Assembly (NCBI RefSeq): GCF_030812295.1
Contig: NZ_JAUSSK010000003.1
Coordinates: 1 to 64,000 of the forward strand
Length of the DNA: 64,000 nt
Direction: 5' to 3'
Source of the DNA: Luteibacter jiangsuensis
GTDB taxonomy: Bacteria; Pseudomonadota; Gammaproteobacteria; Xanthomonadales; Rhodanobacteraceae
Shown here: positions 6,650-15,238 of the stretch, piece by piece
How positions within the stretch are numbered: the first letter of the stretch is position 1
Layout of the letters: every line of letters begins with the position of its first letter
Program-made: the position numbers and the translations under genes
Notes under the pieces: generated by a model
Seen by the model: only the letters and a program-made list of their open reading frames with translations
Database searches by the model: none
Told to the model about the DNA's origin: nothing

Positions 6650-7399
6650 ATGGGTAGAGGCCCGTCCATCGAAGGTCGCAAGAACGCCGAAGACGCCAAG
6701 CGCGCCAAGGTGTTCACCAAGCTGATCCGCGAAATCACCATCGCCACGCGTGGCGGCGTGCCCGATCCCAACGGGAATCCGCGCCTGCGCGCCGCCGTCG
6801 ACAAGGCGCTCGCGGCGAACATGACCAAGGACACCATCGAGCGCGCCATCAAGCGCGGCTCGGGTGCCGAGGGCGGCGCCGACATGCACGAGATCCGCTA
6901 CGAAGGCTACGGCCCGGCGGGTACCGCGCTGATCGTCGATTGCGTGACGGACAACCAGGTCCGCACGGTGGCCGACGTGCGCGCGGCGCTCAACAAACTC
7001 GGCGGCAACATGGGCACCACCAATTCGGTGGCCTTCCAGTTCACCCGCGTGGGCCAGGTCGTCGTGCATACCGGCGGTGATGCCGATGTCGAGTCGAAGC
7101 TGGAAGAAGCGGCGATCGAGAACAACGCCGAAGACATCGTCATCGAGAACGGCGTCGGCACGGTGCTGCTGGCGTCCGATCCCATCGCTGTCGAGGCCAT
7201 GCGCAAGGCGCTGGTCGCGGCCGGCTTCGAGGTCGAGGGTTCCGACGTGGTGATGCGGCCGAACGGTCCACTGGTCACGCCCACCGGCGAGGCCCTGGAA
7301 CAGTTCGAAAAGCTGCTCGAGCGCCTGAACGCGCTCGACGACGTGGACGAGGTCTACCACAACGCCGTCCTCCCGGCCCACGACGCGGACGAGGCTTGA
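6650..7399 (+). CDS. yebC: YebC/PmpR-family protein
   Basis: A 249-residue member of the YebC/PmpR/TACO1 family, described as DNA-binding transcriptional regulators and, in more recent work, as ribosome-associated factors that relieve stalling. The N-terminus [20 protein letters not shown] is the variant seen in Xanthomonas-type proteins in place of the common AGHSKW form. The three-domain body follows, including [15 protein letters not shown] and the Gly-rich [17 protein letters not shown]. It lies directly upstream of ruvC, a conserved arrangement. Confidence 0.95.
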
Positions 7400-7442
7400 G
7401 GCCTTACCGGCCCGTTCCCGTCTTGCGCGTAGCATCGCTGCC

Positions 7443-7964
7443 ATGATCCGCATCCTCGGCATCGATCCGGGTAGCCAGCGTACCGGCGTCGGCGTCATCG
7501 ACGTGTCGGACACCGGCGCGCTCACCCATGTCTGGCATGGCGCCCTGGTGATAGGCGGGGAGGCGAGCTTCCCGCTCCGCCTGAAACGCATATTTGACGA
7601 GCTCTGCGGCATCATCGGCACGCACGGTCCGGCGGAAGCCGCGATCGAGCGTGTGTTCATGGCGCGCAACGCGGACTCGGCCCTCAAGCTCGGCCAGGCA
7701 CGCGGCGCCGCCGTATGTGCCGTGGTCAGCCAGGGAATCGCCGTGCACGAGTACGCCGCGACCGAAGTGAAACAGGCGGTGGTCGGTACCGGCCGCGCCG
7801 ACAAGACCCAGGTCCAGCACATGATCGGGATCATCCTCGGCATCAAGGGTCCGCTGCAGGCGGACGCCGCCGACGCGCTGGCGATCGCCATCGCCCACGC
7901 ACATACACGTTCCAGTATCGAGCGCGTGGGCATCCCCCGCACGGCATGGAGACGTCGCCGATGA
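7443..7964 (+). CDS. ruvC: Holliday-junction resolvase RuvC
   Basis: A 173-residue RNase H-fold endonuclease that cleaves Holliday junctions symmetrically as part of RuvABC. The four acidic catalytic positions are visible: Asp in [10 protein letters not shown], Glu in AIERVF, and two Asp in [13 protein letters not shown]. Its stop codon overlaps the ruvA start (ATGA at 7961-7964), so the two are translationally coupled. Confidence 0.98.
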
Positions 7965-8557
7965 TCGGTCGCCTGCGCGGCACCCTGGTGAGCAAGCAGC
8001 CTCCGTCGCTCCTCATCGAAGTGGGAGGCGTCGGCTACGAGGTCGATGCACCCATGTCGACCATCTACGACCTGCCCGGCACGGGCAAGGAAGTGATCCT
8101 GCTCACCCATTACGCGGTGAAGGAAGACGGCGTGGCCCTCTACGGCTTCCTGCGCGAAGCCGAGCGGGCCATGTTCCGCAATCTGCTCAAGGTAAGCGGT
8201 ATCGGCGCGAAGATCGCGCTGGCCGTGCTTTCCGGCGTGGCCACCGACGAGCTGTCGCGGCTGGTCCATGCGGGTGATGTAGTGGCCCTCACCAAGATCC
8301 CGGGCATCGGCAAGAAGACCGCCGAGCGCATGGTCGTGGAGCTGCGCGATCGCGTGGACGCGGTGGGCGTGCGCCTGCCCGTCAGTACGCTGGGCGAGGC
8401 TGTGCCGGCCGATCCGGTCGGCGAAGCCACCGTCGCCCTGCAACAACTCGGCTACAAGCCGGTGGAAGCGTCCCGGCTCGTTCAAAAAGCCGCCGCCGAA
8501 GGCGATTCCGCCGAGGCCATCATCCGCAAGGCGCTGCGAGCGGCGCTCGGAGGTTGA
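7961..8557 (+). CDS. ruvA: Holliday-junction DNA-binding protein RuvA
   Basis: The 198-residue tetrameric junction-binding subunit that loads the RuvB motor. It shows the N-terminal OB-fold (MIGRLRGTL), two helix-hairpin-helix motifs ([15 protein letters not shown] and [13 protein letters not shown]) and the C-terminal RuvB-binding domain ([11 protein letters not shown]). ruvB is not next to it: kup and the accessory patch separate the two by more than 5 kb. Confidence 0.98.
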
Positions 8558-8559
8558 GA

Positions 8560-10461
8560 GTGAAAACGGAAAACCCCGCCGAAGATATCCAGCACGCCCA
8601 CGGCCGCCGCATCGGCGCCCTGGCGCTGGGCGCCATCGGCATCGTCTTCGGCGACATCGGCACCAGTCCGCTGTACGCCATGAAGGAGACCCTGGGAACG
8701 CACGGCATGACGCCGCATCCAACGGCGGTGCTCGGCGTCCTCTCGCTGATCTTCTGGTCGCTGATCATGGTGGTGTCGTTGAAATACGTGACCTTCGTGA
8801 TGCGTGCGGACAACAAGGGCGAGGGCGGCATCATGGCGCTGATGGCCCTGGCCCAGCGCAGCGTCAGCGGCTCGCCGAGGGCCCGCTGGGTGCTTGCGGC
8901 GATCGGCATCTTCGGTGCCTCGCTGTTCTATGGCGATGGCGTCATCACGCCCGCGATCTCGGTGCTGTCGGCCGTCGAAGGCCTGGAAGTCGCCGCGCCG
9001 CAGCTCGACACCTACGTGCTGCCCATCTGCCTGGTCATCATCATCATCCTCTTCGCGGTGCAGCGGCACGGCACCAATTTCGTCGGCAAGGCCTTCGCGC
9101 CGGTGATGGTGGTCTGGTTCCTGGTGCTCGCCGGCCTGGGCCTGCGCCAGCTCGTGGCCCATCCCCAGGTGCTGGTCGCACTGAACCCGTGGTACGCGGT
9201 GACGTTCTTCCTCGAGCATGGCAAGCAGGCCTTCATCGCCCTGGGCGGCGTGGTGCTGGCGCTGACCGGCGCCGAAGCCCTGTATGCGGACATGGGGCAC
9301 TTCGGCAAGAAGCCGATCCGCCTGGCCTGGTTCACCTTCGTGCTGCCGGCGCTGTTGATCAACTATTTCGGACAGGGCGCGCTGCTGCTGCACGACCAGG
9401 CCGCGATCGAGAACCCCTTCTACAAGATGGTGCCGGAGGACTGGCTCTATCCCATGGTCGCGCTGGCGACGATGTCCGCCATCATCGCCTCGCAGGCGGT
9501 GATCTCCGGCGCGTTCTCGATGACCCGCGAGGCGATGTCGCTGGGTTACTCGCCGCGCATGGCGGTGGTGCATACCTCGCACGAGATGTCCGGGCAGATC
9601 TTCGTGCCCTGGGTGAATCGCATGTTGCTGGTGCTGGTCTTCCTCGCGGTGATCGGCTTCCGTTCGTCGAACAACCTCGGTGCGGCATACGGCATCGCCG
9701 TGACCGGCACGATGACGATGACGACCCTGCTGGCGCTGGTCGTCGCCCGCCGCCGTTGGCATTGGCACTGGTCCGCCGTCATCACCGTGGGCGTGATCTT
9801 CCTGATCGTCGACGTGGCATTCTTCGGCGCGAACGCGCTGAAGATCGCCCATGGCGGCTGGTTCCCCCTGGTGCTGGGCGTGGTGATCTTCACCATGATG
9901 ACGACGTGGCGGCGGGGCAGGGAGCTCGTGGTCCGAGAGATCAAGCAATCCGGCCTGGCCCTCGAACCCTTCGTCGCCAACATCGCCGATCATCCACCGC
10001 TCATCGTTCCCGGCACCGCCGTGTTCCTCACGGCGAACCAGAACTCCGTGCCGCACGCCATGCTGCACAACCTGAAGCACAACAAGGTGCTGCACGAGCG
10101 CAATGTCCTGCTGACGGTGGAAATGCTCGAGACGCCCGTGGCGGACTACGAAGAACGCATGGAAGTGATCGAGTACGGCAACGGCTTCTACGGCCTCCAG
10201 CTGCGCTATGGCTTCGCCGAGGATCCGAACATCCCCTTGTCGCTATCCCGCGCGAGTTCGCTGGGCCTCGACTTCGACATGATGGACACCACGTTCTTCC
10301 TGTCCCGCGAAACCATCGTGGCCGACGCCCGCCGCCCCGGCATGGCGCTTTGGCGCGACAAGTTGTTCGCCTTCCTCGCGCGCAACGCGATGCCGGCGAC
10401 GGCGTTCTTCCAGATCCCGGGCAACCGGTTGATCGAGTTGGGCGCGCAGGTGGAAATCTAG
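8560..10461 (+). CDS. kup: Low-affinity K+ uptake protein Kup (TrkD)
   Basis: A proton-coupled potassium importer of the KUP/HAK/KT family in the inner membrane. The 633-residue protein has about twelve membrane segments, the signature GIVFGDIGTSPLYA near residue 25, and the C-terminal cytosolic domain typical of Kup. The GTG at 8560 is chosen because AGG ends 6 bases upstream; a TTG at 8554 overlapping the ruvA stop is the alternative. Its last codons (ATAFFQIPGNRLIELGAQVEI) are repeated in decayed form twice downstream, which marks this 3' end as a rearrangement junction. Confidence 0.96.
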   Translation: MKTENPAEDIQHAHGRRIGALALGAIGIVFGDIGTSPLYAMKETLGTHGMTPHPTAVLGVLSLIFWSLIMVVSLKYVTFVMRADNKGEGGIMALMALAQRSVSGSPRARWVLAAIGIFGASLFYGDGVITPAISVLSAVEGLEVAAPQLDTYVLPICLVIIIILFAVQRHGTNFVGKAFAPVMVVWFLVLAGLGLRQLVAHPQVLVALNPWYAVTFFLEHGKQAFIALGGVVLALTGAEALYADMGHFGKKPIRLAWFTFVLPALLINYFGQGALLLHDQAAIENPFYKMVPEDWLYPMVALATMSAIIASQAVISGAFSMTREAMSLGYSPRMAVVHTSHEMSGQIFVPWVNRMLLVLVFLAVIGFRSSNNLGAAYGIAVTGTMTMTTLLALVVARRRWHWHWSAVITVGVIFLIVDVAFFGANALKIAHGGWFPLVLGVVIFTMMTTWRRGRELVVREIKQSGLALEPFVANIADHPPLIVPGTAVFLTANQNSVPHAMLHNLKHNKVLHERNVLLTVEMLETPVADYEERMEVIEYGNGFYGLQLRYGFAEDPNIPLSLSRASSLGLDFDMMDTTFFLSRETIVADARRPGMALWRDKLFAFLARNAMPATAFFQIPGNRLIELGAQVEI

Positions 10462-10484
10462 CTCTGGCGGAAGTGCTGTCGGCG

Positions 10485-10517
10485 CGCGAAGGGTGCTCGC
10501 AAAAAGCACCCTTCGCG
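10485..10517. terminator. Stem-loop between convergent kup and secreted-protein gene
   Basis: CGCGAAGGGTGCT (10485-10497) pairs perfectly over 13 bp with AGCACCCTTCGCG (10505-10517) around a 7-base loop. It stands 24 bases past kup and 18 bases past the stop of the opposing gene, as a shared terminator would. There is no clear U tract, so termination strength is uncertain. Confidence 0.6.
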
Positions 10518-10534
10518 GCGATGCACCGCGGTGG

Positions 10535-11326
10535 TCAGGCCTCCACGAGCTTCCGCGCGATCTCCAGAAGGCGGGCCTGATTGGCCTCGCCTGCCTCAGG
10601 GCGAAGAGGTTGCAGCTCGAGCGAGTAGAGCTTGCGCTGATTCTCCCAGCTGACGGAGACGAGGGTGCGTCCGGACGCGCTGCGTGTGGTCCTCATGCTG
10701 CCCTGCTGCCCGTGCACGTCGGTGTTCACCCACTCCTGGACCACCGTGACGGAGTCCTTACTTGCGGCATGATCTCTCTCGTCGAGTATGACAAGGCCGA
10801 GGTCGGCGACTTCGAACGTCCTGGCGAGACCCGTCCACTTCCCCTTGAGGTGGTTCCCACCAAGGCGCACTTCCAGCAGCCTGGCCGACGACAGCGCGGA
10901 TGTTCCGAGATTGATTGGCTTGACCAGGATGTCGTCCTGGATTTCAGTCAGGGAGTGGAAGGTCCGGTCGTGGCGAGGAACGTGTCGGCGCTGGTTGGCG
11001 GCGGCTCTCATCGCTGCTCGCAGGTCGGGAATCTTGTCGTTTTCCGCCGAATAATAGCCACGACTCCGCTGTTCATCGATGTGCTTTCGTATCTCCCTCG
11101 CCTGTTCCGGAGTGCTCCACGTTTCGCTCAGTGGGACCGTGTGGAGCCCCGGCGTCGTGTCGACCTTGCGCAAGTCGACGCCGGCGTCGAGCGCCGCGTC
11201 GATTTGTACGCGCGAGAACGTCGGCGGCGTCACCGGCAGCAAATCGGTTGTGCTCTGGCCTGAAGCCGTGCTGCTGATAAGACAGGCGACGGGCAGAACG
11301 AAGCAAAGTGTTTTCCTATGGGTCAT
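10535..11326 (-). CDS. Secreted paralogue A (unknown family)
   Basis: A 263-residue exported protein I do not recognise. A signal peptide (MTHRKTLCFVLPVACLISSTASGQ) precedes a mature region with GLHTVPLSETWSTPEQA near residue 60, a basic patch (AANQRRHVPRHDRTFHSL) and a beta-rich core WTGLARTFEV - LGLVILDE - EWVNTDVHG - RTLVSVSW. It is closely related to the 264-residue protein at 11724-12518 and more distantly to the 263-residue one at 13341-14132. The start lies one base past the stop of the truncated small-protein copy upstream (TGA-T-ATG), implying translational coupling. Base composition is visibly less GC-biased than in kup or ruvB. No catalytic motif is evident. Confidence 0.8.
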   Translation of the reverse strand: MTHRKTLCFVLPVACLISSTASGQSTTDLLPVTPPTFSRVQIDAALDAGVDLRKVDTTPGLHTVPLSETWSTPEQAREIRKHIDEQRSRGYYSAENDKIPDLRAAMRAAANQRRHVPRHDRTFHSLTEIQDDILVKPINLGTSALSSARLLEVRLGGNHLKGKWTGLARTFEVADLGLVILDERDHAASKDSVTVVQEWVNTDVHGQQGSMRTTRSASGRTLVSVSWENQRKLYSLELQPLRPEAGEANQARLLEIARKLVEA

Positions 11327-11327
11327 A

Positions 11328-11600
11328 TCACCATTTTCCCAGGTTGCAGTCCGTGGCGACGGTCTGCGTATAAAGATTGCGACCCCGTCTATCTGTAAAA
11401 AGATGCGTTCCGGTTACTGTGTTTCTGGAAGAATCGAAACGGTCGCCCGCGTACGATCGCCATGTGAAGCTTTTTCTTGCGGAGACGGCGTGGCCGCCTA
11501 CAGAACCGAAGCCAACGTGCTGACTGATTGTCGTCATCCAATAGCTGTCGAAGCCGGGCCTGTCGTACGTGACAGATTCGTTGATCGCTCCGGCGATCGG
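11328..11600 (-). pseudogene. Truncated copy of the small secreted protein
   Basis: From about 11597 down to 11328 the minus strand encodes a sequence matching residues 32-119 of the intact small protein at 12520-12879 (shared AGxINESVTYDRP, MTT, HVGFG, VGGH, TWRSYAGDRFDSS, NTVTGTHLF, ATDCNL). The signal peptide and first Cys are missing: the homology stops where a copy of the kup 3' end begins, and an in-frame TAG lies immediately upstream. An internal ATG at 11537 could still give 69 residues, but these could not be exported. Read as a deletion or recombination product. Confidence 0.75.
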
Positions 11601-11633
11601 CTAATCGAGCTGGGCGTGCAGGTCGAGATTTGA
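11592..11633 (+). pseudogene. Decayed copy of the kup 3' end (copy 2)
   Basis: On the plus strand this stretch reads GDRLIELGVQVEI then TGA, against GNRLIELGAQVEI then TAG at the end of kup. About three quarters of the bases are identical and most differences are synonymous, so it derives from a coding kup tail. The copy abuts the truncated small-protein gene at about 11597. Confidence 0.8.
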
Positions 11634-11650
11634 CGTTCGGCCGCGAACGT
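11633..11650. terminator. Stem-loop after kup-tail copy 2
   Basis: ACGTTCG (11633-11639) pairs with CGAACGT (11644-11650) around a 4-base loop. It occupies the same place relative to the kup-tail copy as the 13-bp hairpin does relative to kup. No U run, so its activity as a terminator is unproven. Confidence 0.4.
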
Positions 11651-11723
11651 GTCGCCGGGGCCGACTTGATGGGCGGTGCCAGCATGGCGCCGCTATTTCA
11701 TCACCACATTGGCTTGCGAAGAA

Positions 11724-12518
11724 TCAAGTCTCGATAAGGTTGCGCGCAATCTCGAGTAGCCTGGCCTGATTTGCTTCATGGGCCTCGGGGTGCAGGGGTT
11801 GCAGGCGCATCGAATAGATCTTGCGCTCGTTGACCCATCCGACGGTCACCAGTGTGCGTCCTGATGCATCGCGTGCGGTCTTGGTTGTGCCTGATTGTCC
11901 ATTGACGTCGATGTTCATCCACTCCCGAATCAGAGTGACGGACTCGTTGCCGGCTGCGTGATCCGTTTCATTGAGCACGATGAGGCCGAGGCCGGGCACT
12001 TCAAATGTCCGGGCAAGACCGGTCCATTTCCCATTGACGTAGCTTCCGCCAAGACGGACTTCCATCAACGTCGCTGACGACAGTTCAGACGTTCCCAACT
12101 CTGCGGGATTGACCAGAAGATCCTTCCGGACATCGTTCAACGAACGAAAAGCCCTGTCGTGCCTGGGCATTTTCCCACGTTCAGTTGCCGCGGCTTTCAT
12201 TCGGCCCCGCACGTCTACAACCTCGCCGGCTTCCGCCGAATAGAACCCCCGGCTTCTCTGCTGTTCGATCTGTTTGCGCTCTATCTCGGCCTGGTCGGGT
12301 GTGCTCCATGATTCGCTGAGAGGCACGACATGAAGTCCAGGAGCGGTATTGACCTTGCTGATGTCGACTCCCTGCTCAAGGGTCTGCTGAACCTGTGCTC
12401 TCGAAAGCGCTGGTAGCCTCACGTCGCGGGACGTATCGGCAGTTCCATGCGCCATCGTCGCAAATCCGGCAACGCAAACCAGCGGCAAAGTGACGTATCG
12501 AATTTTTTTGTGAGTCAT
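11724..12518 (-). CDS. Secreted paralogue B (unknown family)
   Basis: A 264-residue exported protein, the closest relative of paralogue A and collinear with it along the whole length (GLHVVPLSESWSTPDQA, QRSRGFYSAE, PRHDRAFRSLN, LGTSELSSATLMEVRLGG, WTGLARTFEVPGLG, EWMNIDVNG, ANQARLLEIARNL). The ATG at 12518 starts a clear signal peptide (MTHKKIRYVTLPLVCVAGFA) and lies one base past the stop of the small-protein gene (TGA-A-ATG), with GGGGGAG inside that gene as ribosome site; the pair is translationally coupled. Function unknown. The lower GC suggests foreign origin or weak selection on codon use. Confidence 0.82.
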   Translation of the reverse strand: MTHKKIRYVTLPLVCVAGFATMAHGTADTSRDVRLPALSRAQVQQTLEQGVDISKVNTAPGLHVVPLSESWSTPDQAEIERKQIEQQRSRGFYSAEAGEVVDVRGRMKAAATERGKMPRHDRAFRSLNDVRKDLLVNPAELGTSELSSATLMEVRLGGSYVNGKWTGLARTFEVPGLGLIVLNETDHAAGNESVTLIREWMNIDVNGQSGTTKTARDASGRTLVTVGWVNERKIYSMRLQPLHPEAHEANQARLLEIARNLIET

Positions 12519-12519
12519 T

Positions 12520-12879
12520 TCACCACTCCCCCAGGTTACAGTCTGTCGCGATGGTCTGCTGGTAGCGTCTGAGTCCAAATTCGTCGACGAAGAGGTGTGT
12601 TCCCGTGACGGTGTTTTTGGAAGAGTCGAAACGGTCGCCTGCGTACGATCGCCAGGTGTACGCCTTCGGTGCCGAGCGCGTGTGGCCGCCTACGGCGCCG
12701 AAGCCCACATGCGTACTGAACGTCGTCATCCAATGGCTATCCAGGTTTGGCCTGTCGTATGTGACGGATTCGTTGATCACGCCGGCGACACAATTCGCCC
12801 GGCTGATCGATTTGATAAGCGCGTTCGCGTCAGTCGCTGTAACAGCGAGGACGGCGGCGGTCACTATCTGAGCCTTCAT
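12520..12879 (-). CDS. Small secreted two-cysteine protein
   Basis: A 119-residue exported protein of no family I recognise. The start at 12879 is preceded by AAGGAG. A signal peptide ends at about residue 20 (DANA). The mature part has Cys30 near its start and Cys114 near its end (ATDCNLGEW), which could close the chain by a disulfide, with a Tyr/Trp/Thr/Gly-rich beta-like middle. It is first in a coupled pair with paralogue B. A truncated duplicate with the same arrangement lies at 11328-11600. The promoter should be in the 461-base gap upstream; I cannot pick it out. Confidence 0.75.
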   Translation of the reverse strand: MKAQIVTAAVLAVTATDANALIKSISRANCVAGVINESVTYDRPNLDSHWMTTFSTHVGFGAVGGHTRSAPKAYTWRSYAGDRFDSSKNTVTGTHLFVDEFGLRRYQQTIATDCNLGEW

Positions 12880-12983
12880 GCATGCTCCTTCAAGGTGCTG
12901 CCCGAATGGGCTTCAGCAAATTAAAGGCACGACCGGCGGAGGTGCAGTCGATCCTGCCCACCACGACTTGTAGGCCCACGCTG

Positions 12984-13048
12984 CTGGCGATAGCGTTCTT
13001 CCAGATCCCCAGGAGACTGTTGTTGAGCCCGAGCGCGGGTCGAGATCT
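12984..13048 (+). pseudogene. Decayed copy of the kup 3' end (copy 3)
   Basis: 12984-13009 matches kup 10393-10418 at 23 of 26 positions and encodes AIAFFQIP against ATAFFQIP in kup. The match continues with small indels to about 13048 (GAGCCCGAGCGCG, CGAGATCTT against GAGTTGGGCGCGCAGG, GGAAATCTA), where the frame is lost. The rest of the gap 12880-13340 holds no gene I can support. Confidence 0.75.
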
Positions 13049-13340: not shown

Positions 13341-14132
13341 ATGCGAACAGCAAGATGTGCCATTGCGCTCGCCCTTTGCACGTGGCGCCTCGTTCCGGCG
13401 ACACACGCGACGGAAAACGTTCTTTCAGATTCGTTTGTCGTCAAATCCGGCATACCCGCGAGTGAGGTGGAACGAGCACGGGCCGAAGGGTTCGACATGA
13501 GTCGCATGCATGGGGCCCCTGGTCCGCACATCGTTCCTCTCGACGAGTCGCCTTTCGTCGGCCCCCTGGCACAACAAGTCAGACAAGAGCTTGCCGAGCA
13601 GAAGGTGAATGGCGTGGGGATTGCGCGACAAGGTGAGGTGCCGGACCTCCGGAAGGCGAGTCGCATGGCGCTGAAAAGCCGTAGTCGCATGGCTCCATCT
13701 GACAGGCCATATCAGTCGTTGGCATCCATTCGGCCGCATTTGCGCTACGAGCCGATTTCGGTGAAAGGAACGATTCTCCAAAACGTGCGGCTCGTGGAGG
13801 CTACAACAGGCGGCGGACTTCTCGATGGTCGGTGGACAGGCGTCTCACGATCCTGGGAAGTGGCTGGCCTGGGCTATGTTCAGTTGGAGGAATCCGAATA
13901 TCGCGAGAGTGGTGGTTCGATCACTCTCATCAAGGAATGGGTCAATGCGGATGTCAACGGCAGTCCAGGGTCCGTCCAGACAAAGCGGGAGCGCCGTGGT
14001 AAAACCCTCGTTTCGCTCGATTGGGTCACGGACAATACGGCTTTCCGTCTGGATCTTCAGCCCCTCGATCCCAATGCGGTGAAGGCGAACCAAGAGGCCT
14101 TGCTGGCTCTTGCGCGCAGCTTGGGCGGCTGA
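13341..14132 (+). CDS. Secreted paralogue C (unknown family, opposite strand)
   Basis: A 263-residue exported protein and a divergent member of the same family as A and B. It keeps the core WTGVSRSWEVAGLGYV, ITLIKEWVNADVNG, GKTLVSLDW and the C-terminal LQPLDPNAVKANQEALLALAR, plus GPHIVPLDES and QSLASIRPHL. The N-terminus (MRTARCAIALALCTWRLVPATHA) is a signal peptide. A strong GGAGGAGGT ribosome site stands 5 bases upstream of the ATG. It is inverted relative to A and B and has no small-protein partner, so it may be the older, separately evolving copy. Confidence 0.78.
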   Translation: MRTARCAIALALCTWRLVPATHATENVLSDSFVVKSGIPASEVERARAEGFDMSRMHGAPGPHIVPLDESPFVGPLAQQVRQELAEQKVNGVGIARQGEVPDLRKASRMALKSRSRMAPSDRPYQSLASIRPHLRYEPISVKGTILQNVRLVEATTGGGLLDGRWTGVSRSWEVAGLGYVQLEESEYRESGGSITLIKEWVNADVNGSPGSVQTKRERRGKTLVSLDWVTDNTAFRLDLQPLDPNAVKANQEALLALARSLGG

Positions 14133-14197: not shown

Positions 14198-15238
14198 ATG
14201 TCAGAGCACCGCATCATTTCCGCTGCCGCCGCCATGGACGACGAGGCGCTGGAAGCCAGCATCCGTCCGAAGCGCCTGGCCGAATATCTCGGCCAGCAGA
14301 CGGTACGCGAGCAGATGTCCATCTATATCGAGGCCGCGCGGCGGCGGGGCGGGGCGCTGGATCACGTTCTGATCTTCGGCCCCCCCGGCCTGGGCAAGAC
14401 CACGCTCTCGCACGTCATCGCCAACGAATTGGGCGTCAACGTGCGCTCCACGTCGGGCCCGGTTTTGGAGCGGGCGGGCGACCTGGCCGCCCTGCTCACC
14501 AACCTGGAAGCCAACGACGTCCTCTTCGTGGACGAGATCCACCGCCTTTCACCCGTGGTGGAGGAAGTGCTCTACCCGGCGATGGAAGACTTCCAGATCG
14601 ACATCATGATCGGCGAAGGACCGGCCGCCCGGTCGATCAAGCTCGACCTGCCACCCTTCACGCTGATCGGCGCGACCACCCGGGCGGGCTTGCTCACCGG
14701 TCCGCTGCGCGACCGTTTCGGCATCATCCAGCGCCTGGAGTTCTATAGCGTCGACGAGCTGACGGCGATCGTCCGTCGCGCCGCACGGATCTTCAATATC
14801 GACTGCGAGCTGGACGGTGCCATCGAGATCGCCCGCCGCTCGCGCGGCACGCCGCGTATCGCCAACCGGCTCTTGCGCCGGGTACGCGATTTCGCCGAGG
14901 TGCGCGGCGATGGCCGGATCACCCATGAGCTGGCCCGCGCGGCCACCGATATGCTCAAGGTGGACGCCGAGGGTTTCGACGACCTCGACCGGCGGTTGCT
15001 CAGCACGATCATCGAGAGCTTCGACGGCGGTCCGGTCGGGGTGGAGTCGCTGGCGGCCGCGCTCAGCGAGGATCGCGGCACCCTCGAGGACGTGGTCGAA
15101 CCCTACCTGATCCAGCAGGGCTACCTGATCCGTACCGCCCGTGGCCGCATGGCCTCGGCCAAGGCCTGGCGGCACCTCGGGCTGACCCCGCCGCCGCGCC
15201 AGGTGGCCACGCCGGACCTGTTCCCGGGCGACGCATGA
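14198..15238 (+). CDS. ruvB: Holliday-junction helicase RuvB
   Basis: The 346-residue AAA+ motor that drives branch migration with RuvA. Walker [11 protein letters not shown] (about residue 64), Walker B VDEIHRL, sensor [18 protein letters not shown] and the C-terminal winged-helix domain ([18 protein letters not shown]) are all present. The stop overlaps the ybgC start (ATGA at 15235-15238). Confidence 0.98.

What the first reader, a model, noticed from the sequence alone, without database searches (positions are those of the whole stretch)
10393..13048. Decayed copies of the kup 3' end punctuate a duplicated secreted-protein module
Two remnants of the last codons of kup lie downstream on the same strand: 11592-11633 (GDRLIELGVQVEI) and 12984-13048 (AIAFFQIP, then frameshifted). 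Each follows a module made of a large secreted-protein gene and a small secreted-protein gene on the opposite strand. The order is kup tail, large A, small A', kup tail, large B, small B, kup tail. That is the pattern of tandem duplication or repeated insertion using the kup 3' end as junction. No integrase or transposase is present, so a recombination-driven rather than element-driven origin is favoured. A locus that rebuilds the end of an essential-type transporter gene while gaining secreted-protein modules looks undescribed.
Basis: seen in the sequence. Interest (0 to 1): 0.78.

Follow-up and report, generated by a model that had tools for sequence, protein, structure and literature searches.

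The report
Transporter gene-end fossils mark gene insertions
In a Luteibacter bacterium, two decayed copies of the last codons of a potassium-transporter gene are real scars, best explained by foreign two-gene cassettes that hooked on through the transporter gene and pushed the old gene end downstream, a known kind of recombination caught here in an unusually clear form.

Summary
R1 (11598-11633, junction 11592-11597) and R2 (about 12979-13048) match the kup 3' end above shuffled controls. The genus is Luteibacter. In 23 genomes the kup-ruvB interval is empty in 15 (22-220 nt) and carries two-gene cassettes or their remains in 8. A profile search of these intervals leaves three remnants above shuffles: R1, R2 and a weaker one in L. 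anthropi, each beyond a cassette on the strand opposite kup.

Tandem duplication is not supported. Cassette A is sister to that of Luteibacter sp. UNC138MFCol5.1 (84% identical; 57% to B), with third-position identity (0.84) just above all 46 window genes compared, though the genomes are not sisters. Their homology stops at R1. Today's kup end shares that genome's rare codons, while R1 keeps the genus majority and differs more from today's kup (9 of 36) than from 22 relatives (3-8).

So R1 is the former end, left when donor kup end plus cassette recombined homologously on one side, illegitimately on the other. The mechanism is known, including displacement in Vibrio T6SS arrays. Unusual are the intact housekeeping anchor and a possible second case in Pseudohongiella. 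Cassette function is unknown.

The parts
8554..10461 (+). kup, complete K+ transporter gene, the recombination anchor (first TTG at 8554, GTG at 8560; true start not determined)
   Evidence: Pfam K_trans and K_trans_C, E 5e-191 and 4.3e-51
10426..10461 (+). last 12 codons of today's kup, inferred to have arrived with cassette A
   Evidence: At -10, -7, -2, -1 it has the state of G013; of the other 21 genomes 0, 3, 3, 2 share it. The left breakpoint is not resolved
10486..10516 (+). hairpin after kup, shared with G013
   Evidence: read in the sequence; G000-G013 identity 91% over 120 nt round the kup end
10535..11326 (-). large A, 263 aa, N-terminal signal-peptide-like stretch (by eye)
   Evidence: 84% to G013, sister with support 100/100; third-position identity 0.837 over 264 codons
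11328..11597 (-). small A', fragment of the small gene, 5' end missing
   Evidence: matches residues 31-119 of small B at 74%; G013 carries the full gene
11592..11597 (.). illegitimate junction small A' / old kup tail; GGCGAT here, GGCAAT or GGCAAC in most kup tails
   Evidence: the G000-G013 blastn match runs from 9859 (start of the query stretch) to 11597 and stops there (alignment; tails)
11598..11633 (+). R1, displaced last 12 codons of an earlier kup, stop TGA
   Evidence: 3-8 of 36 differences to the 22 relatives, 9 to own kup
11724..12518 (-). large B, 264 aa
   Evidence: 63% to G018, 57% to A; 78% to an 86-88 aa fragment in G017
12520..12879 (-). small B, 119 aa, upstream partner of large B in an operon-like pair
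   Evidence: 73-75% to G013 and G018
12880..12967 (-). upstream region of small B, right edge of conserved cassette sequence
   Evidence: 75% to G013 and 68% to G018 over about 100 nt, then similarity ends
12979..13048 (+). R2, older kup remnant, about -74 to -2 of kup, with indels
13341..14132 (+). large C, 263 aa, diverged paralogue on the kup strand; probably the older occupant of the interval
   Evidence: sister to G009's copy, support 91/91; G009 lies in the same five-genome core clade
14198..15238 (+). ruvB, the fixed right neighbour
   Evidence: found beyond kup in all 23 genomes

Best explanation
The kup-ruvB interval of Luteibacter is an acquisition site without an integrase. Incoming DNA from another Luteibacter carries the end of its kup gene followed by a two-gene cassette (large and small putative secreted proteins, pointing towards kup). 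One side recombines homologously within kup, so kup stays whole but gets the donor's end. The other side joins illegitimately, at little or no homology, to the recipient just upstream of its old kup stop. The recipient's old last codons are left beyond the cassette and decay. In this genome it happened at least twice: cassette B displaced R2, later cassette A displaced R1. Shown: the remnants, the transfer-like history of A, the end of shared sequence at R1, and that R1 is not a copy of today's kup end. Inferred: which crossover produced the left side, the order of events, uptake by transformation.
For: Three remnants above shuffles in 23 intervals, all in kup orientation and all beyond an opposite-strand cassette; the third, in L. 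anthropi (kup about -143 to -66), I first noticed by eye in the output and then scored: 16.5 bits against a shuffle maximum of 7.4 with the 240-nt profile, 14.3 against 10.0 with the 120-nt one. The 5' limits differ (about -36/-42, -74, -143/-151), against a fixed attachment site. G000-G013 homology ends at 11597 = R1. Large A third-position identity 0.84, against mean 0.65, s.d. 0.083, maximum 0.83 for 46 window genes, and mean 0.63, maximum 0.80 for the 19 of them with 75-90% protein identity; G000 and G013 are not sisters in a nine-gene tree. Today's last codons and cassette A occur together in G000 and G013 and in 0 of 21 others. R1 has the majority base at all four sites where G000 and G013 depart together. 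Within kup, G013 shares 5 of 6 rare third-position states of the last 60 codons, 13 of 88 elsewhere, Fisher p 0.0008, window chosen after looking. ComEC is present, though it also rings in 10 of 14 control genomes.
Against: No remnant was found beyond the cassettes of G013 (followed by intergenic repeats and a run of 455 N) or G017. The left breakpoint is unresolved: on the excess identity of the kup end G000-G013 ranks 34th, 14th, 8th and 20th of 253 genome pairs for 40, 60, 70 and 90 codons, so it is not a unique outlier. The L. anthropi remnant is weak: a scan with the last 93 nt missed it, pairwise blastn did not list it, and its own kup scores 29 where the best relative scores 32. The same scan gave a reverse-strand match in G006 (17, shuffle maximum 15 of 300) that the profile did not confirm; two further G000 matches with the 120-nt profile (5.9 and 4.3 bits) lie below the shuffle maximum. 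For R2 and the L. anthropi remnant the donor-end test could not be made; they could descend from one event. R1 is only 36 nt. No second strain of this species was available.
Confidence: 0.7

Rival explanations
1. Tandem duplication of a unit from the kup end to the small gene made A and B, leaving R1 at the joint, followed by divergence.
For: The topology (truncated small gene joined to a kup tail) is what one such duplication would give; A, B, G013 and G018 form one clade, support 100/100.
Against: A is sister to G013 (100/100), not to B (57%). R1 is farther from its own kup end (9 of 36) than from any of 22 relatives (3-8). One duplication leaves R2 and the L. anthropi remnant unexplained.
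Confidence: 0.1
2. Single-crossover (Campbell-type) integration of a circle, such as a mobilizable plasmid, that carried a kup tail and the cassette.
For: Leaves the same final structure. A distant relative of the cassette sits on a 6,030-bp mobilizable plasmid of Acinetobacter.
Against: The large protein itself found no match in 72,556 plasmid records. The four interval proteins tested match no Pfam family, so no relaxase among them. The circle would have to carry a Luteibacter kup tail.
Confidence: 0.13
3. Site-specific integration at the kup 3' end by an element that rebuilds the gene end and has since lost its integrase.
For: Gene-end rebuilding is typical of such elements (established knowledge).
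Against: Remnants start at different places in kup; no recombinase family among the four interval proteins tested.
Confidence: 0.05
4. Chance similarity or repeated simple sequence.
For: The remnants are short.
Against: R1 and R2 lie beyond all shuffles.
Confidence: 0.01

Closest known systems
Homology-facilitated illegitimate recombination (HFIR)
   Same: one homologous and one illegitimate end adds foreign DNA beside an anchor; start of the abstract of PMC3240628 seen in the search listing: described in three naturally competent species and in E. coli conjugation
   Different: here it is read from decayed remnants in natural genomes, with an intact housekeeping gene as anchor
Successive displacement of T6SS effector-immunity modules in Vibrio cholerae (PMC5361080, passages read)
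   Same: authors propose a mechanism akin to HFIR; each new module shifts older parts, including an effector 3' end, downstream; successive events build an array
   Different: there the anchor is the upstream part of the module itself and immunity genes are kept; here kup is rebuilt, the leftover is a non-functional gene end, and no effector-immunity function is shown
Minimal mobile elements of Neisseria (definition read in a passage of PMC3082526; original papers not read)
   Same: two conserved genes with different whole-gene cassettes between them in different strains
   Different: incorporation there is by homologous recombination, which by itself predicts no gene-end remnants (inference)

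Membership tests
Product of HFIR | one junction inside sequence homologous to the recipient | tested here: inconclusive
   kup continues without a break into the cassette and its last codons are donor-like, but the crossover point cannot be placed
Product of HFIR | other junction illegitimate, with little or no homology | tested here: met
   small A' to R1 joint: GGCGAT against GGCAAT or GGCAAC, similarity to G013 ends there
Product of HFIR | uptake of linear DNA by transformation or transfer | not testable with these tools
   ComEC present, not diagnostic
Minimal mobile element | two conserved flanking genes, variable or absent cassettes between them | tested here: met
   15 of 23 genomes empty, 8 of 23 loaded
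Minimal mobile element | exchange by homologous recombination in the flanks | tested here: inconclusive
   remnants at the far side point to an illegitimate joint in 3 cases; other cassettes show no remnant
Integrase-driven genomic island | fixed attachment core and a recombinase gene | tested here: not met
   variable remnant starts; no Pfam family in the four interval proteins tested
Tandem duplication | copies more alike to each other than to other species' copies | tested here: not met
   A-B 57%, A-G013 84%; tree 100/100
Effector-immunity or toxin-immunity pair | toxic activity of one product neutralised by the other | not testable with these tools
   no Pfam match; no convincing fold match for the large protein; small-protein model too poor, pLDDT 53

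The most novel reading that the evidence does not exclude
This small-plus-large two-gene cassette family may spread by a general integrase-free stacking mode: it attaches beyond the stop codon of an intact host gene, pointing towards it, rebuilds that gene's end and pushes the old end to its far side. It would be seen at kup in two Luteibacter species and independently at a PQQ-dehydrogenase-like gene in a Pseudohongiella MAG, where copies of about 300 nt (96% identical, holding the last 113 nt of the gene) flank the cassette, with the same convergent order and the truncated copy on the far side.
Probability: 0.12. Interest if true: 0.75.

Novelty: new variant of a known kind. Interest (0 to 1): 0.45.

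Why it matters
One-sided (homology-facilitated) recombination is hard to recognise in natural genomes. Displaced ends of a conserved anchor gene give a way to detect and order such events: the remnant keeps the old allele while the rebuilt gene carries the donor's. Searching for decayed 3' ends of conserved genes beyond accessory cassettes could measure how often genes are gained this way without mobile elements.

Tried and rejected
Tandem duplication, a site-specific element and chance: see rivals. Searches for a function led nowhere: Pfam gave nothing and NCBIfam two matches far below their cut-offs; PDB sequence profiles gave no believable match; AlphaFold models gave mean pLDDT 75.5 for the large protein and 53 for the small one; Foldseek against PDB gave 0 matches at E <= 0.001, the best being 1vr8 at 1.2e-3 with TM-score 0.25 by the query.

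Direct repeats found beside the cassette in family f2, genus g38 (3 of 8 loci: L152, L153, L156) looked at first like gene-end duplicates. Reading the sequence shows REP-like repeats (GTAG-type; my reading and recall, not a tool's), so they were not counted. Two cassettes elsewhere in Luteibacter (G003, G011) have flanking repeats that I read as intergenic and none that I recognise as a gene end.

The tree contained one row that I translated in a wrong frame (L156, 14 stops); I use the tree, without that row, the other outgroups and the G017 fragment. In one search my kup query was out of frame; one search repeats that search with the right frame. One search compared unoriented loci; replace it. 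Literature: Luteibacter with horizontal gene transfer, 38 papers, 10 listed, none on this locus by title and abstract start; duplicated gene ends, 0 papers; Luteibacter with kup, 1 paper on tick microbiomes. I make no wider claim about what is in print.
Full report
What is there. The window lies in a Luteibacter genome: named neighbours found with the small protein are Luteibacter sp. UNC138MFCol5.1 (here G013), L. anthropi CCUG 25036 (G018) and a Luteibacter MAG (G017). Between kup and ruvB lie, from left to right: large A and a truncated small A' on the - strand, remnant R1, large B and small B on the - strand, remnant R2, and large C on the + strand.

The remnants are real. R1 and R2 score 36 and 42 against the kup end, with shuffle maxima of 29 and 30 in 2000 shuffles each. 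A profile of the last 240 nt of kup from 23 genomes gives 25.7 and 24.2 bits, with a maximum of 7.4 in 50 dinucleotide shuffles of the whole interval set of 16,743 nt.

The interval across the genus. In all 23 Luteibacter genomes held, ruvB follows kup. In 15 of 23 the gap is 22-220 nt. In 8 of 23 (G000, G005, G006, G009, G010, G013, G017, G018) it holds cassettes of the same two families or their remains. Opposite-strand cassettes occur in four of these: G000 (two), G013, G018, and a fragment in G017. Same-strand C-type genes occur in G000, G005, G006, G009, G010 and G017, and as a fragment in G018. Two genomes (G003, G011) have C-type cassettes elsewhere. In the sequence of G018 printed I noticed a further kup-like stretch upstream of that cassette's small gene. 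The profile search over all 23 intervals confirms it: about -143 to -66 of kup, 16.5 bits (maximum of shuffles 7.4), or 14.3 bits (maximum 10.0) with a 120-nt profile (alignment). It is weak: the scan had missed it, and pairwise blastn does not list it. No other match exceeds the shuffles; two G000 matches of 5.9 and 4.3 bits with the 120-nt profile do not, and a reverse-strand match in G006 seen (17 against a maximum of 15 in 300 shuffles) is not confirmed by the profile. So 3 of 5 opposite-strand cassettes have a kup remnant on the far side, and no interval without such a cassette has one at this level.

Cassette A came from elsewhere. Large A is 84% identical to that of G013 and 57% to large B; the tree pairs A with G013 at 100/100. 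Identity at third codon positions between G000 and G013 is 0.837 for large A and 0.80 for small A', but 0.68 for kup. For 46 other window genes compared with G013 the mean is 0.65, s.d. 0.083, maximum 0.83; for the 19 of them with 75-90% protein identity, comparable to large A, the mean is 0.63 and the maximum 0.80. I left out the interval genes and three open frames judged by eye to be in the wrong frame, and a few of the 46 may still be such frames. G000 and G013 are not sisters in a tree of nine core genes from this locus: G000 groups with G002, G004, G009 and G022, and G013 with G012. The match between the two genomes runs through the kup end and cassette A and stops at 11597, where R1 begins.

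R1 is the old end, not a copy of the new one. In its 36 unambiguous nucleotides R1 differs from today's kup of the same genome at 9 sites, and from the 22 relatives at 3 to 8. At -10, -7, -2 and -1 today's kup shares its state with G013; of the other 21 genomes 0, 3, 3 and 2 share it, and R1 has the majority base at all four. R2 also reads GTC GAG near its end, as most genomes do; it aligns best with the kup end of G001 (39), its own kup being seventh to ninth of 23 (31, tied). The rare end and cassette A therefore go together in 2 of 2 genomes that have the cassette and in 0 of 21 without it. A duplicate of today's end would have had to change to the majority base at each of these sites.

Mechanism. 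The simplest account is homologous recombination in kup on one side and an illegitimate joint on the other. The joint shows only GGCGAT against the GGCAAT or GGCAAC of most kup ends. The starting points of the three remnants differ, against a fixed attachment site. What is not shown: where in kup the crossover lay, since the excess identity of the kup end ranks 34th, 14th, 8th and 20th of 253 genome pairs for 40, 60, 70 and 90 codons; how the DNA came in; and whether R2 and the G018 remnant are separate events. A single crossover with a circular molecule would leave the same picture. ComEC is present, which is common and not diagnostic.

Outside Luteibacter. In a Pseudohongiella MAG (locus L120) a related small-large pair lies between two copies of about 300 nt, 96% identical, that hold the end of a PQQ-dehydrogenase-like gene (named by eye) and the start of the next gene. 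The full gene is on the large-gene side and faces the cassette; the truncated copy lies on the far side and continues a transposase-like frame (named by eye). That frame makes an element-driven origin possible there, and the small gene appears broken by stops. A distant pair sits on a 6,030-bp mobilizable Acinetobacter plasmid: the small gene at 36.8% identity (tblastn E 3e-3), the next gene matching the large-family profile at hhalign E 4.6e-6 and hmmsearch E 1.8e-7; large B itself found no plasmid. In a sample of 398 genomes of the order, 8 of family f2, genus g38, and 1 of family f8 have the small gene besides Luteibacter. At the three g38 loci with repeats close to the cassette I read REP-like elements, not gene ends.

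What is known. HFIR is established; the start of the abstract of PMC3240628 was seen in the listing. Passages of PMC5361080 propose a mechanism akin to HFIR for successive displacement of effector modules in Vibrio, including a displaced effector 3' end. Neisserial minimal mobile elements were seen as a definition in a passage of PMC3082526. The present locus works like these. What differs is that the anchor is a complete transporter gene with no part in the cassette, and that its displaced ends let one order the events. I therefore call it a new variant of a known kind.

Function of the cassette. Both proteins begin with a signal-peptide-like stretch (by eye). No Pfam family matches, and no NCBIfam family above its cut-off. 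The model of the large protein (mean pLDDT 75.5) has a confident C-terminal beta-rich domain without a convincing PDB match (best 1vr8, E 1.2e-3, TM-score 0.25 by the query); the small-protein model is too poor to use. A pair of partner proteins exported to the periplasm or outside is the most I can say.

Noticed in passing
L120:4560-4859 and 7373-7672: Pseudohongiella MAG: 300-nt direct repeats (96%) holding the end of a PQQ-dehydrogenase-like gene flank a related small-large pair; a transposase-like frame lies between the pair and the truncated copy.
   Followed up: partly
L159:1451-2670: A distant small-large pair is carried by a 6,030-bp mobilizable plasmid (MOBP) of Acinetobacter sp. YH12138.
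   Followed up: partly
L106 (G006), kup-ruvB interval: Small and large gene are fused into one 285-aa open frame by an internal deletion that joins the first half of the small gene to the large one.
   Followed up: no
L114 (G017), just after kup: Only the last 86-88 codons of an opposite-strand large gene are recognisable; no kup remnant was found beyond it.
   Followed up: partly
L116:6894-7348 (same run in L117:5072-5526): A 455-N run lies beyond the small gene of UNC138MFCol5.1, where a kup remnant would be sought.
   Followed up: no
window:13341-14132: Large C stands without a small partner, as in G009, its sister in the tree; G005, G010 and G017 keep the partner and G006 has it fused.
   Followed up: partly
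L152, L153 and L156, cassette edges: In three of eight loci of family f2, genus g38, the pair is bordered closely by REP-like intergenic repeats in direct orientation.
   Followed up: partly
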